DNA of 64,000 nucleotides, taken from the NCBI GenBank assembly GCA_021740995.1, contig JAIOYR010000001.1, positions 81,756-145,755 of the forward strand, in the 5' to 3' direction. This DNA comes from Taibaiella sp. GTDB taxonomy: Bacteria; Bacteroidota; Bacteroidia; Chitinophagales; Chitinophagaceae. Made by a program: the position numbers and the translations under genes. The notes beneath the pieces were generated by a model. It worked only from the letters and a program-made list of their open reading frames with translations, did no database searches and was not told the origin of the DNA. Positions 25,974 to 32,872 of this stretch are shown piece by piece; position 1 is the stretch's first letter; each line of letters starts with the position of its first letter.

Positions 25974-26714
25974 TCACAGCAAGTGTCCTGTTTTTTTCAG
26001 AAGTGCCTCCAGCTTGTCGGGAGATACGGATATCTCATGCGTTTTATCAATCAACAGCGACCCGCCATTCGACTTTATATAATCGGTGATGTGCTTGATG
26101 TTGACAATGTAAGACTTGTGGCACCTGAAAAAGTCGGCATTGTCAGCCAGCATATTCTCAAAGTTCTTAAGACCTTTGCTTACCAGCACGGGCTTGCCGG
26201 TATGCAAGACCACTTTGGTATATGCGCCATCAGCCTCAAAATAAAGTATGTCTGAGGTTTCCACAAACGTTATTGAATTGAACGTGTTGAGCCCTATTTT
26301 TTTAGGTCCGGTACCCAGGTTCTCTTTTAGTACAGCGTAGTTTTGTTTTACCTTACTTTTTTCAAACAGAGATACTGCATTTTTAAGATCGTCGGCTTCT
26401 ATTGGTTTTAGCAGGTAGTAAGTAGCAGACATTTTGAACGCCTGTATCGCATATTCATTATAAGCTGTTACGAAAATAATAGAGAACCCCACCTCTTCGT
26501 CGTTGAAGAAGTCCAGCAGTTCCAGCCCGCTATGACCGGGCATTTCTATATCCAGAAATACAATGTCCGGATTGTACTTTCTTATGGCTTTCACACCGGT
26601 AGGCAAGTCTTTGCACAGTGCCGCTACACTTACTGTGGGTATATACTCGTTGAGCATTTCATTCAGCAGTGTGCGTGCCATTTCTTCATCATCAATAATT
26701 ACAGCGGTATACAT
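25974..26714 (-). CDS. LytTR-family response regulator
   Basis: 246 aa; REC domain (IIDDEEMARTLLNEML, DIVFLDIEMPGHSGLELL) plus C-terminal LytTR domain (FFRCHKSYIVNIKHI). Confidence 0.94.
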   Translation of the reverse strand: MYTAVIIDDEEMARTLLNEMLNEYIPTVSVAALCKDLPTGVKAIRKYNPDIVFLDIEMPGHSGLELLDFFNDEEVGFSIIFVTAYNEYAIQAFKMSATYYLLKPIEADDLKNAVSLFEKSKVKQNYAVLKENLGTGPKKIGLNTFNSITFVETSDILYFEADGAYTKVVLHTGKPVLVSKGLKNFENMLADNADFFRCHKSYIVNIKHITDYIKSNGGSLLIDKTHEISVSPDKLEALLKKTGHLL

Positions 26715-26731
26715 ACTGTTTGTTGTTTTGT

Positions 26732-29632
26732 TTAGATTGGGATTTTTATAACTACTCTTGTCCCCGCAGCACTACCGTTTGGGTGTGTCTTGTCGGTGAT
26801 TTCTATTTTTATTTTTTCGCTTCTTCCTTTGTTCAGCAACTCCATTCTTTTTTCGCTCGCTTTTGTGGCAAATGAGCGGTATTTTTCCGTCCTTATCTTA
26901 TTCAGTTCTTCAGAGCGTTTTCTGCCTATACCATTATCGTCTATTGTTACCTGGAGTATGTTGCTGTTTCTTTCAAAGATTATGTGCAATAGCTTATCTC
27001 CGTTTTTATGCAGCAAACCATGTTTTATTGCGTTCTCTATGTATGGCTGTATAATCATTGAGGGTATTTCTATCATTTCCTTATTATCTATTCCATGAAA
27101 CTGCATGTCATATTCAAACCCGCTTTCGAAGCGCATCTTCTCCAGATCCAGGTATAGTTTCATAGTTTCGGCCTCTTCATTAAGTGATACGGTTTCAGCT
27201 TCAGACATTTCCAGAATGATGCGGGTAAGCCGCGAGAACTTGGCAAGGTAGCTGCTTGCCCGCGTCTTGTCGTTCATGAATATATATGCCTGAATAGTAT
27301 TGAGTGCATTGTAAAAAAAGTGTGGGTTCATTTGCGCGCGAATGGATGTTAACATAGACTTTCCCAGCTCCTGCTCCAGTTGCATACTCTTTTTCTGCGC
27401 CTCCAACTTATTTATTCTAACGTTTATTTTCCTTTTATAGTAAACCAATATCAGTGTAAACACAACCAGCAGGCAAATCAGATAGAACCACCATTGCTTC
27501 CAGAAAGCAGGCTGAATACTGAATTGTATTTTTTTAACAATGCTGCCATATTCACCCAGTTTGAAGGAAAGTGTGTAGCTGCCATTGGCAAGGGCCGGGA
27601 ACTGTAGCAAACGGCTGCCCTTCGTTATTTCCTTCCACTCGTTATCGTTGAGCTTGTAATACACACCTGCTTGCACTACCGTGCCAAAGTCAAGTACAGA
27701 AAAGCTGATAGTAATATTGTTCTCGAAGTAGTTGAGTTCATTGTTCCCATCTGCACTTATGGGTTTGCCATTTGCGGTAACGCTATTAATGTAGAAGAGT
27801 GCCGGTTTTCTTTTCGTTTTATATCCTTGATTATTGAGGGATATTATTCCCTCATTGGTCACTACATATAGCTTCTCTTTGTCTTTTAGTATATCGTTTA
27901 TACCGTTGATGTCTATACTGATTTCTATTCGCTCTATTGAGTCGTTGATGGTATTCAGTTTGTATAGATTGCCTTCGCCAAACAGGTATAGCTCATTACC
28001 AAAACGCTTCATAATCGAAATGTCCTTTAGCGGCAGATTCTTACAACTCGCAACTGCTCCGGATGGCGTATAAGGGATTTTCAGCACAAGCCCCATAGAG
28101 GTAAGTGCATACAATACTCCGTTTACTGCCTGTAGGGAATTTGCGAATACAGATTGCCCATTTGGAGTAATTGTTGACACCGCATGAGGAGATACACAAT
28201 AGACACCTTTATTTGTGGCGAAAAATATTTGCCTGTTTTGGGCATCATAGGTTACAGATTTTCCCCTAACCAGATTTATCAATGGAGTTATGTCGGGATA
28301 TCTTGTATTCTTCTCACTATTATTCAAACTATCCCAGACAGATTTTTCGGAATTGCTGCTGGAGTGGTTTTTCATAAAACCGCAAAAGACACTGGAGGCA
28401 AAAGCGTAATACTTATTGTCGAGCCGAACCACCTCTTTCAGCGCTATAATTTTCTTATGTTCATATTTTTTGCCCGCTACTGATGTTAGCGTAAACCCCA
28501 GAGATGAGTAGATTGCATATTGTGAGTCAGCATACAGATAGTAGATACTGCTATTGCCTGGGTCGCTGCTCACCACCATCGAGTTTTCAAAATTTTGGTT
28601 CACATGCAATAGCTTTCCTTTTTGCGTTGCCGCAAAATATCCATCCCTCGCCACCACTATTTTGTTAATAGTAAAAGTCTCGGTTGGGAACAGTATGTTT
28701 TTCATGTCCGGCACTATAAACAAACCTTCATTAGTAGTAGAGAACCAAATATTGTTTTGACGGTCTTTGATTACTCCGGAAACACTCTTACCATTGAAGT
28801 AGGCTGCTTTTCTTTCCCCCGATGCATCCTCTATGGCATATGTGAAACTGCCTGTTGGGCTGTTGATAAAAATGCTGCTGTCGATAGCGGAGACATGCTG
28901 TATTGTCATTTGCCCCTGAATCGATATTTTTTTTACCAGCTTTAGGTTCTTGTCATAACAGTAGAACCCTTTTTCGGCACTGTTGCCAGATGTAATATAC
29001 ACTCCGTCAGGGGCTGCATACATATTGTGCAATACTCCTTTTTCAGATGTCGGTATTTTGCAGGAGGTAAGGCTAAGATCATCTGAAATTTTGTAAAGAA
29101 TATTTTCTGAAAGCATGTAGTAAGCATTGCTGGAACTTACTGTATTTATCCAGGTGGTTACAGGTATGTCCAGAGATTTCACATGCTTCAGAGTGGCGAT
29201 GTCGTATATGTCTGCCCCCTTGTTGGTGGTGATATACAGATAGTGGGTGCTGATGCCAAAAGGTAGGTAATAATATGGGGTGTTTTGATTGATAGATTTC
29301 AGTTTGCCACTGTCGGTATAATACAGGTATCCATCAAAGTTTTCGTACCATATTCTTCCATACTTGTCTTCCCGTATGCAACTGCCGGGCAGCGATGTTT
29401 GCTCGGTAGACTTGTAAGATACAAACTCAAAGCCATCATATCGGCAGAGCCCCTCGCCAGTGGCCATCCACATAAAACCTTTACTATCCTGAAAGACATT
29501 ATACACTGCGTCAGATGGTAGTCCGTCCTGCCGGTTCAGTTTCAGATAGCAGGGGTGCTGCGCCTGTGCAGTAGCCGCAAAGAACAGTAACAACAACAGG
29601 AAGAACCAATTTATCTTTTTTACAGAGCGCAT
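26732..29632 (-). CDS. Sensor histidine kinase: two-component propeller / Y_Y_Y extracellular part plus LytS-type His_kinase domain
   Basis: 966 aa; RQDGLPSDAVYNVFQDSKGFMWMATGEGLCRYDG, TM segment, LTSIRAQMNPHFFYNALNTIQAYIF, DNGIGRKRSEE. Confidence 0.93.
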   Translation of the reverse strand: MRSVKKINWFFLLLLLFFAATAQAQHPCYLKLNRQDGLPSDAVYNVFQDSKGFMWMATGEGLCRYDGFEFVSYKSTEQTSLPGSCIREDKYGRIWYENFDGYLYYTDSGKLKSINQNTPYYYLPFGISTHYLYITTNKGADIYDIATLKHVKSLDIPVTTWINTVSSSNAYYMLSENILYKISDDLSLTSCKIPTSEKGVLHNMYAAPDGVYITSGNSAEKGFYCYDKNLKLVKKISIQGQMTIQHVSAIDSSIFINSPTGSFTYAIEDASGERKAAYFNGKSVSGVIKDRQNNIWFSTTNEGLFIVPDMKNILFPTETFTINKIVVARDGYFAATQKGKLLHVNQNFENSMVVSSDPGNSSIYYLYADSQYAIYSSLGFTLTSVAGKKYEHKKIIALKEVVRLDNKYYAFASSVFCGFMKNHSSSNSEKSVWDSLNNSEKNTRYPDITPLINLVRGKSVTYDAQNRQIFFATNKGVYCVSPHAVSTITPNGQSVFANSLQAVNGVLYALTSMGLVLKIPYTPSGAVASCKNLPLKDISIMKRFGNELYLFGEGNLYKLNTINDSIERIEISIDINGINDILKDKEKLYVVTNEGIISLNNQGYKTKRKPALFYINSVTANGKPISADGNNELNYFENNITISFSVLDFGTVVQAGVYYKLNDNEWKEITKGSRLLQFPALANGSYTLSFKLGEYGSIVKKIQFSIQPAFWKQWWFYLICLLVVFTLILVYYKRKINVRINKLEAQKKSMQLEQELGKSMLTSIRAQMNPHFFYNALNTIQAYIFMNDKTRASSYLAKFSRLTRIILEMSEAETVSLNEEAETMKLYLDLEKMRFESGFEYDMQFHGIDNKEMIEIPSMIIQPYIENAIKHGLLHKNGDKLLHIIFERNSNILQVTIDDNGIGRKRSEELNKIRTEKYRSFATKASEKRMELLNKGRSEKIKIEITDKTHPNGSAAGTRVVIKIPI

Positions 29633-29686
29633 TTTTACAGACTGATTGCAAAGATAAAATCTGACACAAATAACAGGACCTTATTT

Positions 29687-29728
29687 TATGAATACCCGTT
29701 TTAAGGGTATGAATGCCCTGTTAAGGCA
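29687..29728. promoter_or_regulatory. Two tandem 21-bp direct repeats upstream of the secreted repeat protein
   Basis: tatgaatacccgttttaaggg / tatgaatgccctgttaaggca; head-to-tail, period exactly 21. Confidence 0.7.
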
Positions 29729-29912
29729 CATTAAAGCCCATAAGCAGCAGTTATATGATTTAAAATACACAGCAGGTTGCCGAAAGGCTGATGTAAATGC
29801 TCGTAAACCCAAAACGGGGGTTTGTAAGACCGGATCGGTCATTGGTAAAACACATCAGCTGATGCCCGACTATTCCGCCCACCTTTGCTCTGAACAAAAA
29901 AACAGCCTAACA

Positions 29913-31832
29913 ATGAAAAAGACAATTACAAAAGGTTTAGTGGTATTGGCGCTGGCAATGCCTGTATGTGCAAGTGCACAGTCATCGCCTACATTCGAGT
30001 GGGGGCAGAAGGTAGGACGCCCGATAACTCCGTGCAACAACTCATCATTTGCATCTGCGGTGGATGCCGCCGGCAATGTTTACACTACCGGTAGATTTCA
30101 GGACACTACCGATTTCGACCCGGGTGCGGGCACAGTTACGCTTACTCCGGCAAGCACATTTAATTGTGCTTATGTAAATAAGACTGACCCTAACGGCAAC
30201 CTGATATGGGCAAAGGCTTTTACAGGTGTGGGCGATGCTTTTGGGCGTGCTGTAGCGGTAGATGATACCGGTAACGTATATGTTACCGGCAGTTTTACAG
30301 GTACTATTGATTTCGACCCCGGCACAGGAGTAAGTAACCGCACGTCTGCAGGTGCGGAAGATTATTTCCGGGTGACGCTAAATCCGTCAGGAAATTTTAT
30401 ATCTGCTACTTCGGGTGGCGGAGGGGGGCAGGAATTGGGTACAGCCATTGCCACTGACCATTCCGGCAACCTCTACATCTCTTACGATCTTGCAGGAAGC
30501 GCTGCCAGAAACGTAGCAATAATAAAAGGTAGCGGAGGAGTGGTAGCATGGACGTATCAGATGTCTGGTTCGGGTAGTGGATACTGCTACGGTTCGAACA
30601 AAATTGCACTGGATGCTGCAGGTAACGTTTATGTAACAGGATTCTTCAGAGGATCTATTAATTTTAACCCTGCAGGTAGTGCCTGGAGAAATAGCACGTT
30701 GGCTGGCACTCCGCCTAGCCTTTCACCTTCTAATGATATCTACATCCTAAAAATAACCGCATCTGGTGTTTTTGCATGGGTACAAACTATCGGCGGCACA
30801 GGTGCACTTCAAGGTCAGGGTATTGTTGCTGATGCTGCGGGCAATACCTACTCTGTAGGTCGTTTTATAGGAACAAGTGTTGATTTTGACCCGGGCAGTG
30901 GAAGTGCTTCTTTGTCTGCTACGAATACCAATGGATATATACTGAAGCTGGATGCAGACGGAAATTTCAAGTGGGTAAAGCAGGTTTCTTCGGGGAGTTT
31001 CTGTGATGCAAGAAGCGTTGATATAGATAATCTCGGAAATTTTTATGTAAGCGGTGACTTCACTGGTACTTACTCGCTGCCATGGGCTTCGGTGGGTCCG
31101 TTTTCTGGCGGGTCAGCTACTTCTGATGGTTATATTCTGAAGATAGATACGGCTGGAACGCTGGGATGGAATGGCACGCTGGCGGTTTCGGCAAGTACCG
31201 CGCGCAATACCCTGTCTTCTATAACTGTAACTGGCGATGGCAATATCTACGCTACATGCTCATTTAGCGGTACGGTAGATTTCGATCCAGGTGCAGGTGT
31301 TGCCAATTTCACTCCCGGATCAGACATGGATTTGGGTCTGATAAAGCTGAAACAATGCTTTCTTAATGATGCGGTGAGCCTTGCAGGCACTACCATTACA
31401 GCAACTATGGCAGGCGTGTCTTACCAGTGGATAGACTGCGCGGGTAATACCCCGGTAGGAGGTGCTACCACACAAAACTTTACACCGGCGGTCACAGGCA
31501 ACTATGCCGTTGTTATTACCTCCGGTTCATGTACAGATACCTCTGTATGTACCATGGTAACGATACCTACCGCTGCTGTTACTGATCTTAACGGTACAAA
31601 TCAGGTATCAGTATATCCCAATCCGGCAACAAACATGGTAACCATTGCCAACCTGGCTGCCGGTAGCAGGATAACAATACTGGACATTACCGGCAAAACT
31701 GTTTATCAAAACACATCTTCTGGTACTGCTATGAATATCACTACATCCCACCTTTCAGCAGGTCTTTATGTGGTTAAGATTACAGACAACAGTGAGCAAA
31801 CGTCGGTTAAAAAACTTGTGGTGAACAGATAA
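29913..31832 (+). CDS. SBBP-type repeat secreted protein with T9SS type A sorting domain
   Basis: Real start probably ATG 29913 (MKKTITKGLVVLALAMPVCASAQ signal peptide); repeated DAAGNVYTTGRFQDTTDFDPGAG units; SVYPNPATNMVTI...GLYVVKITDNSEQTSVKKLVVNR. Confidence 0.88.
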   Translation: MKKTITKGLVVLALAMPVCASAQSSPTFEWGQKVGRPITPCNNSSFASAVDAAGNVYTTGRFQDTTDFDPGAGTVTLTPASTFNCAYVNKTDPNGNLIWAKAFTGVGDAFGRAVAVDDTGNVYVTGSFTGTIDFDPGTGVSNRTSAGAEDYFRVTLNPSGNFISATSGGGGGQELGTAIATDHSGNLYISYDLAGSAARNVAIIKGSGGVVAWTYQMSGSGSGYCYGSNKIALDAAGNVYVTGFFRGSINFNPAGSAWRNSTLAGTPPSLSPSNDIYILKITASGVFAWVQTIGGTGALQGQGIVADAAGNTYSVGRFIGTSVDFDPGSGSASLSATNTNGYILKLDADGNFKWVKQVSSGSFCDARSVDIDNLGNFYVSGDFTGTYSLPWASVGPFSGGSATSDGYILKIDTAGTLGWNGTLAVSASTARNTLSSITVTGDGNIYATCSFSGTVDFDPGAGVANFTPGSDMDLGLIKLKQCFLNDAVSLAGTTITATMAGVSYQWIDCAGNTPVGGATTQNFTPAVTGNYAVVITSGSCTDTSVCTMVTIPTAAVTDLNGTNQVSVYPNPATNMVTIANLAAGSRITILDITGKTVYQNTSSGTAMNITTSHLSAGLYVVKITDNSEQTSVKKLVVNR

Positions 31833-31916
31833 GACAGGATATTTTCTATCACTATGAAAATGTGTTTGCATTCAGGCCACAATCTTTGATAAGGCAGGTT
31901 TAAAACACAAGTTGAA

Positions 31917-31952
31917 AAGAGGTGGTTACTTTATTGTTTCCGCCTCTTTTTC
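31917..31952 (+). terminator. Terminator-like hairpin, module copy 1
   Basis: aagaggtgg...ccgcctctttttc. Confidence 0.75.
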
Positions 31953-32119
31953 ATTTTTTATTACAATGCCATTTTAGGCGAAATTGAAAACACTGTGAAA
32001 TCCCTTTACAAACTCAAACGCCAGTTTCGTATACTCAAAAAGGGCTTACATATATTGGTCTCCAATACCCACTCACATTTGTTTCATCTTTGTATAGAAC
32101 AATTAACAACACCAGGAAT

Positions 32120-32206
32120 ATGAAAAAGAAAATATTCGAAATCGCAGTTGCAAGTATTGGGTTTATGACGGTCACTATGCTCATAGCTGGTACTGTATCT
32201 GCCTAG
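32120..32206 (+). CDS. 28-aa hydrophobic/signal-peptide-like small protein, copy 1
   Basis: MKKKIFEIAVASIGFMTVTMLIAGTVSA*; too short for the supplied ORF track; paralogous to the ORF at 32579. Confidence 0.6.
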   Translation: MKKKIFEIAVASIGFMTVTMLIAGTVSA

Positions 32207-32383
32207 GCGGTCTTTTCGGTACATTGCCTAAAGGTTGTTCCGGCACAGGTTGTCTTATGGATTTTCTTGGCTCATTCTTTAATCAATACTGATAAATGAA
32301 GATGTTGCCTGTCACTATGAAAAGCGGTTGCATCAGGGCTGCAAGTGGTTTAAGCAGTTCCTTTAGTCAATACCCCTAGTAGG

Positions 32384-32416
32384 GAGGCAGTGCCAATTAT
32401 GGTGCTGCCTCTTTTT
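32384..32416 (+). terminator. Terminator-like hairpin, module copy 2
   Basis: gaggcagtgcc-aattat-ggtgctgcctcttttt. Confidence 0.8.
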
Positions 32417-32578
32417 GGTTGTCAACCTTCAAGCAGTGCAGATATCTGTACCATTTGGCACCCTTTATAAACCCAAATACACGTTTCATGAACTCAAACA
32501 GGCCTTACGTATATTGGTCCATAAAACACTCGCGCTTTTGAGTCACCTTTGTTATGTACAATTCAAAAACGACCAAAA

Positions 32579-32665
32579 ATGAAAAAGAAAATATTCACAA
32601 TCGCGATAGCAAGTGTTTGCTTTATGGCAGTAAGTATATTTATTGCAAGCAGTGTAAATGTGTAA
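32579..32665 (+). CDS. 28-aa hydrophobic/signal-peptide-like small protein, copy 2
   Basis: MKKKIFTIAIASVCFMAVSIFIASSVNV*; same length as copy 1 with mostly conservative substitutions. Confidence 0.6.
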   Translation: MKKKIFTIAIASVCFMAVSIFIASSVNV

Positions 32666-32807
32666 TCTGATTATTAAAGATGCACACCTTTAAACAATTG
32701 AACTTTATTGATATTTTGAACTAGTTGATAGGACCTGCAGGCGACCCTATTTCTATGGGGTCGCCAGAAGCAGGAATTTACCGCCTTATGCAAAGTACTC
32801 CCAATAA

Positions 32808-32833
32808 ATCGCCGGCGAGATGCCGGCGATTTT
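32808..32833. terminator. Strong hairpin, probable bidirectional terminator
   Basis: atcgccggc-gagat-gccggcgattttatt. Confidence 0.8.
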
Positions 32834-32872
32834 ATTAAGTGCAGTTTCCTGCGTCATGCATTGTAGTTAGCT

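What the first reader, a model, noticed from the sequence alone, without database searches (positions are those of the whole stretch)
31846..32665. Tandemly duplicated module encoding paired 28-aa signal-peptide-like ORFs absent from the ORF track
Two colinear copies (offset 459-463 bp) each contain a tcactatgaaaa segment, a terminator-like hairpin, a conserved ~120 bp upstream region and an ORF of exactly 28 codons: MKKKIFEIAVASIGFMTVTMLIAGTVSA and MKKKIFTIAIASVCFMAVSIFIASSVNV. Differences are mostly conservative, suggesting selection on the peptides. A charged N-terminus plus one hydrophobic helix could be a secreted-peptide leader, a small membrane protein, or a type I toxin-like peptide. 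The MKKKI start loosely recalls short Bacteroidota peptide families such as NVEALA, but the characteristic tail is not visible in frame.
Basis: partly seen in the sequence, partly recalled or inferred. Interest (0 to 1): 0.8.

Follow-up and report, generated by a model that had tools for sequence, protein, structure and literature searches.

The report
Signal-peptide stubs behind LytTR-type promoters
Two short duplicated genes next to a bacterial sensor system appear to be the leftover starts (switch plus export tag) of secreted-protein genes whose main bodies are gone; the predicted control switch is the more useful discovery, while the mini-peptides are probably leftovers.

Summary
In detail: two 28-codon ORFs (32120-32206, 32579-32665) in tandem units offset 459-463 bp. 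They occur only in this genome. The conserved upstream block is a predicted LytTR response-regulator promoter (half-sites TTYRTRAA, 21-bp period). A matrix built only from other loci gives, as its six best hits in 64 kb, sites before both ORFs, before the adjacent T9SS-sorted SBBP gene (29913-31832) and before the LytTR two-component operon (25974-29632). In relatives the same sites precede full-length secreted proteins or the regulator genes. At the matching position Flavipsychrobacter G034 has two tandem full-length secreted genes, and G010 has a gutted SBBP gene behind an intact site. The 28 aa are a signal peptide (closest: the own-genome NHL-repeat protein). Both ORFs stop at the codon that encodes Gln(+1) in the full-length genes. 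The 'tcactatgaaaa' segment is the 3'UTR of the SBBP gene family. Copy 1 has a coding-like 29-codon tail in the -1 frame. Best reading: truncated members of a LytTR-controlled secreted-protein array. No evidence for NVEALA, RiPP or type I toxin. Caveat: both stops fall at the same codon and dN/dS is about 0.27, so retained signal-peptide-only microproteins are not excluded.

The parts
25974..26714 (-). LytTR-family response regulator, predicted activator of the sites below
   Evidence: Pfam Response_reg + LytTR; orthologs 78% identical in G034 and G010
26732..29632 (-). LytS-type sensor histidine kinase with two-component regulator propeller
   Evidence: Pfam Reg_prop, His_kinase, HATPase
29680..29715 (-). 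LytTR-type site in front of the kinase-regulator operon (predicted autoregulation)
   Evidence: Matrix without window sites, score 16.6, sixth best hit in the window
29799..29833 (+). LytTR-type site of the SBBP gene
   Evidence: Third best hit with the matrix built without window sites (22.1); R1 20.6 bits, training site
29913..31832 (+). SBBP beta-propeller repeat protein with T9SS sorting domain; real start MKKTITKG, signal peptide ...CASAQ
   Evidence: Pfam SBBP, Por_Secre_tail; ortholog L168 7385-9301
31833..31952 (+). 3'UTR of SBBP with TATCACTATGAAAA and terminator-like hairpin
   Evidence: Homologous to the copy 1 3'UTR (score 66, shuffle maximum 44); the copy 1 3'UTR also matches those of G034 SBBP and the G010 remnant
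32003..32038 (+). LytTR-type site of copy 1 (TTTACAAAC N12 TTCGTATAC, possible third half-site about 32047)
   Evidence: Leave-window-out score 20.5, plus 18.9 for the overlapping second site
32085..32092 (+). Putative -7 element CATCTTTG of copy 1 (consensus TAnnTTTG from memory)
   Evidence: Pattern scan; at the same place in copy 2
32120..32206 (+). Copy 1 28-aa ORF = signal peptide ...GTVSA then TAG at the Gln(+1) position
   Evidence: aligned by eye with own-genome NHL leader
32203..32292 (+). Copy 1 tail in the -1 frame: LGGLFGTLPKGCSGTGCLMDFLGSFFNQY*, ending one codon before the SBBP-homologous stop
   Evidence: Codon score +2.1 against -11.7 and -28.4 in the other frames; P=0.009 versus open shuffles
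32288..32414 (+). Copy 1 3'UTR (GTCACTATGAAAA) and terminator 32381-32414
32460..32498 (+). LytTR-type site of copy 2 (TTTATAAAC N12 TTCATGAAC)
   Evidence: Best of all window positions with the leave-window-out matrix, 30.8; simulated maxima mean 12.6, highest 19.8
32544..32551 (+). Putative -7 element CACCTTTG of copy 2
   Evidence: Pattern scan
32579..32665 (+). Copy 2 28-aa ORF = signal-peptide-like ...SSVNV then TAA at the Gln(+1) position; cleavage site eroded (Val at -1)

Best explanation
The two modules are truncated members of a tandem array of secreted-protein genes predicted to be controlled by the LytTR two-component system next to them. Each keeps its LytTR promoter, 5'UTR and signal-peptide codons, but the exported body is lost. 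The stop lies where full-length members have Gln(+1) after the signal-peptidase site. Copy 1 also keeps a coding-like 3' scrap, out of frame, and the family 3'UTR and terminator. When the kinase is active, the regulator would bind the 21-bp direct repeats and transcribe SBBP and both stubs; the stubs would yield only a free signal peptide. Shown by sequence: the site family and its neighbours, the signal-peptide nature, the position of the stops, the missing bodies and the relatives' gene content. Inferred: binding, expression, and lack of present function.
For: A matrix without window sites ranks copy 2, SBBP, copy 1 and the kinase operon as the window's six best hits (30.8 down to 16.6; next 13.0; simulated maxima mean 12.6, highest 19.8). 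Of 15 further sites examined that were not used for the model, 10 precede a signal-peptide or lipoprotein ORF, 1 lies at a contig end before the start of such a gene, 2 are placed between kinase and regulator in front of a LytTR regulator, and the remaining 2-3 have no such gene or lie inside a gene. The same arrangement is seen in Flavobacterium, including an SBBP protein. The architecture 9 bp + N12 + 9 bp fits published LytTR sites (PMC6193735; PMC4847170). At the orthologous array G034 has SBBP followed by two tandem 500-aa-class secreted genes; G010 has SBBP reduced to promoter, about nine codons and the last codons. The leader resembles that of the LytTR-site NHL gene in this genome. Gln(+1) in full-length members fits the Bacteroidetes Q-rule (PMC5837995).
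Against: Both ORFs stop at the same codon, which suggests truncation before duplication; conservation since then (dN/dS about 0.27, 84 nt without indels or stops) would then argue for a function of the 28 aa. Synonymous divergence (dS about 0.95) is old for a pseudogene. The copy 1 tail has no detectable similarity to the SBBP 3' end. No binding or expression data.
Confidence: 0.62

Rival explanations
1. Retained signal-peptide-only microproteins: after one truncation the stub was duplicated and both 28-aa products are kept, as LytTR-induced small membrane peptides or peptide signals.
For: Same stop position in both; dN/dS 0.27; BLOSUM conservation P 0.009; no stop or frameshift; promoters well kept. 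A LytTR-like site in a Flavobacterium MAG precedes a lone 33-aa hydrophobic ORF (L246).
Against: No ortholog in any genome searched; copy 2 lost the small residue at -1; only 84 nt, two copies; selection could predate loss of the bodies.
Confidence: 0.22
2. Copy 1 is a small secreted two-Cys protein (57 aa) that appears frameshifted through a real mutation or an assembly error: signal peptide + LGGLFGTLPKGCSGTGCLMDFLGSFFNQY.
For: Tail in the -1 frame is coding-like (P 0.009) and ends next to the SBBP-homologous stop before the shared 3'UTR.
Against: No convincing homolog of the tail in 299 genomes of the order (the best non-self hit lies antisense to a reverse transcriptase); copy 2 has no such tail; no slippery heptamer seen at the junction.
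Confidence: 0.12
3. Type I toxin-like hydrophobic peptides or NVEALA/RiPP-type precursors.
For: Length, lysine-rich N-terminus and single hydrophobic stretch; tandem copies.
Against: No Pfam, NCBIfam or Rfam match; no maturation or export genes adjacent; no clear antisense promoter; promoter and signal peptide are shared with ordinary secreted proteins.
Confidence: 0.04

Closest known systems
LytTR response-regulator promoters (e.g. HdrR/BrsR, YpdB-PyhjX)
   Same: Two 9-bp direct repeats separated by 12 bp in front of promoters, also in front of the regulator's own operon; E. coli YpdB half-site GGCATTTCAT resembles GTTTCATGAA
   Different: Here in Chitinophagaceae, with TTYRTRAA half-sites and genes for T9SS/Q-rule secreted proteins; no binding shown
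Q-rule Sec/SPase I signal peptides of Bacteroidetes
   Same: KKK n-region, hydrophobic core, V-S-A end in copy 1; full-length family members continue with Gln
   Different: The Gln codon position is a stop (TAG/TAA) and no exported body follows
SBBP/NHL/S74-type secreted genes of Flavipsychrobacter LytTR arrays
   Same: Same promoter sites, 3'UTR segment and array position
   Different: Relatives carry 500-1000 codon bodies; here 28 codons
Type I toxins (Ibs, TisB, Ldr) and NVEALA peptides (from memory)
   Same: Short, one hydrophobic stretch
   Different: No antisense RNA found, no characteristic tail, no family match

Membership tests
LytTR-regulated promoter | Two direct repeats of about 9-11 bp separated by 11-13 bp | tested here: met
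   TTTACAAAC-N12-TTCGTATAC and TTTATAAAC-N12-TTCATGAAC; definition from PMC4847170 and PMC6193735
LytTR-regulated promoter | Motif shared with sites at LytTR regulator loci elsewhere | tested here: met
   Matrix from other loci ranks these sites top in the window; held-out sites at regulator and secreted genes
LytTR-regulated promoter | Physical binding by the regulator | not testable with these tools
   Needs a gel shift or footprint
Sec signal peptide (Q-rule) | Charged n-region, hydrophobic core, small residues at -3/-1 | tested here: inconclusive
   By inspection, copy 1 V-S-A fits; copy 2 V-N-V does not (Val at -1); no signal-peptide predictor available
Sec signal peptide (Q-rule) | Gln at +1 | tested here: not met
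   Both have a stop there; full-length regulon members have Gln
NVEALA / natural-product precursor | Family HMM match and characteristic tail | tested here: not met
   No Pfam or NCBIfam match for the peptides
Type I toxin-antitoxin | Antisense RNA antitoxin | tested here: inconclusive
   No Rfam match; only a single -7-like element on the reverse strand at 32581
Type I toxin-antitoxin | Toxicity on expression | not testable with these tools
   Needs an experiment

The most novel reading that the evidence does not exclude
Signal-peptide-only microproteins, born when a LytTR-controlled secreted gene lost its body at the Gln(+1) codon, then duplicated and kept by selection as inducible small membrane peptides or signals.
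Probability: 0.2. Interest if true: 0.6.

Novelty: new member of a known kind. Interest (0 to 1): 0.36.

Why it matters
It turns an unexplained pair of short ORFs into a testable regulatory prediction: an explicit LytTR operator (TTYRTRAA-N13-TTYRTRAA) in front of secreted and T9SS proteins and of the two-component genes themselves, in Chitinophagaceae and Flavobacteriaceae. It also warns that signal-peptide-like short ORFs in Bacteroidota can be truncated secreted genes, recognisable by a stop at the Gln(+1) codon.

Tried and rejected
Homology searches with the 28-aa and 57-aa peptides and the tail: weak hits inspected were antisense to a reverse-transcriptase gene, overlapping other genes, or signal peptides of unrelated large proteins. 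Copy 1 tail as the remnant of the SBBP C-terminus: not supported (P 0.3-0.9). Attenuator or leader-peptide regulation: no downstream gene in the transcript direction, since copy 1 ends in a terminator and rlmD is convergent. Programmed -1 frameshift: no slippery heptamer. The first motif AAACYCAAA-N12 was re-registered to TTYRTRAA after seeing relatives; its IUPAC genome scan gave no more hits than the reversed control (29 against 27), so I moved to position-specific models.

Full report
OBSERVATION. The two ORFs (32120-32206, 32579-32665) and their tandem arrangement are exactly as described. The copies share 74% identity over about 180 bp (E about 2e-23). Both have ordinary coding-like codon usage (+7.3 and +9.8 bits; true-frame median 8.7).

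DISTRIBUTION. In the own genome (a 151-contig draft; the closest named relatives are Flavipsychrobacter, Chitinophagaceae) the leader matches only the two copies and, weakly, the signal peptide of an NHL-repeat gene on contig C79. No relative of the 28-aa or 57-aa peptide was found in 35 genus genomes, 299 family genomes, GTDB contigs or viral contigs. At the rlmD locus, relatives G006, G005 and G011 have the 814-aa gene next to rlmD with only 20-45 bp between, and G015 has other genes there. So the block 25974-32872 (regulator, kinase, SBBP, two modules) is specific to this lineage at this position.

THE PROMOTER. The conserved upstream region contains two 9-bp direct repeats with a 21-bp period. 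I first saw this because the C79 NHL gene, which lies behind a second kinase/LytTR pair, carries a similar upstream element. Orthologs of the window's regulator and kinase in G034 and G010 show a cleaner form, TTCGTAAA-N13-TTCGTAAA. A profile from 16 sites found further, untrained sites across the genus. Of 15 examined, 10 precede a signal-peptide or lipoprotein ORF, one lies at a contig end before the start of such a gene, two stand in front of LytTR regulators, and the rest have no such gene or lie inside a gene. Flavobacterium loci show the same, including a site in front of an SBBP protein next to the regulator. Because the first matrices included window sites, I rebuilt one from other loci only. 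Its six best positions in the 64-kb window are copy 2 (30.8 and 26.8), SBBP (22.1), copy 1 (20.5 and 18.9) and the kinase operon (16.6). The next is 13.0; maxima in 20 simulated windows averaged 12.6, and the highest was 19.8. So the best copy 1, copy 2 and SBBP sites each exceed all the simulated maxima; the kinase site (16.6) exceeds 18 of 20. The architecture equals published LytTR sites (PMC6193735; PMC4847170).

THE ORFS. The full-length genes behind these sites begin, in nearly all cases that are not lipoproteins, with a Sec signal peptide followed by Gln, as the Q-rule predicts (PMC5837995). Aligned by eye with the NHL leader MKKKIFTIAAGSLAFIAATLLVSFGANA|Q, both window ORFs end at residue 28, and their stop codons (TAG, TAA) stand at the Gln codon, one C-to-T change from CAG/CAA. 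In copy 1, however, the in-frame continuation is not coding-like (-9.7), while the -1 frame is (+2.1; P 0.009 against open shuffles). It gives LGGLFGTLPKGCSGTGCLMDFLGSFFNQY and ends one codon before the position of the SBBP stop. After it comes a 3'UTR homologous to those of window SBBP, G034 SBBP and the G010 remnant (scores 66, 41 and 39 against shuffle maxima of 44, 38 and 33). Thus 'tcactatgaaaa' is the family 3'UTR, and copy 1 looks like a gene with both ends and no body.

THE ARRAY IN RELATIVES. In G034, SBBP (638 aa) is followed by the same 3'UTR and terminator, then a LytTR site and a 575-aa secreted gene, then another site and a second secreted gene. In G010, SBBP itself is reduced to site, promoter, about nine codons and its last codons with the 3'UTR, a clear case of a gutted array member. 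The window's two modules occupy the array position held by the two full-length genes in G034. Gene loss behind intact promoters is therefore documented at this array in another species.

SELECTION. NG86 gives dN 0.26 and dS 0.95 between copies. The amino-acid changes are more conservative than random substitution gives (P 0.009), and their number is marginally low (P 0.065). For scale, dS between this genome and its closest sampled relative at rlmD is about 2.4, so the duplication is younger than that split. Conservation could have accrued while the genes were full-length, or could mean that the 28-aa products are still used. The identical stop position favours a single truncation before duplication, which would favour use. 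The loss of the small residue at -1 in copy 2 and the absence of orthologs favour decay. With 84 nt and two copies this cannot be settled here.

VERDICT. Truncated (stub) members of a LytTR-controlled secreted-protein array: 0.62. Retained microproteins: 0.22. A frameshifted 57-aa secreted protein for copy 1: 0.12. Toxin or NVEALA type: 0.04. The predicted LytTR operator is the more solid and more useful result.

Noticed in passing
L112 (own contig C79) 3306-9102: Second kinase + LytTR regulator + NHL-repeat secreted protein set, with LytTR-type sites before the NHL gene and before the regulator.
   Followed up: partly
L169 6990-7300 (G010:C25): SBBP ortholog gutted to promoter, about nine codons and the C-terminal codons plus 3'UTR, a parallel case of body loss behind an intact LytTR-type site.
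   Followed up: partly
L246 12995-13028 (Flavobacterium MAG): LytTR-type site followed by a lone 33-aa hydrophobic ORF MSVFIKNFNFKMMLLAIATIVILGLNVYNVVCL; a possible second short ORF of this kind.
   Followed up: no
L230 10001-10732 (Flavobacterium ajazii): LytTR regulator 69% identical to the window's although from another order; downstream a partial site and a 168-aa lipoprotein; possible horizontal transfer.
   Followed up: no
window 25974-32872: About 7-kb lineage-specific block between the 814-aa gene and rlmD, which are adjacent in several relatives; G015 carries different genes there, so this may be an insertion hot spot.
   Followed up: partly
window 29688-29912: The longest ORF call for the SBBP gene overextends upstream: the LytTR site and promoter lie inside it; the likely start is 29913.
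   Followed up: yes
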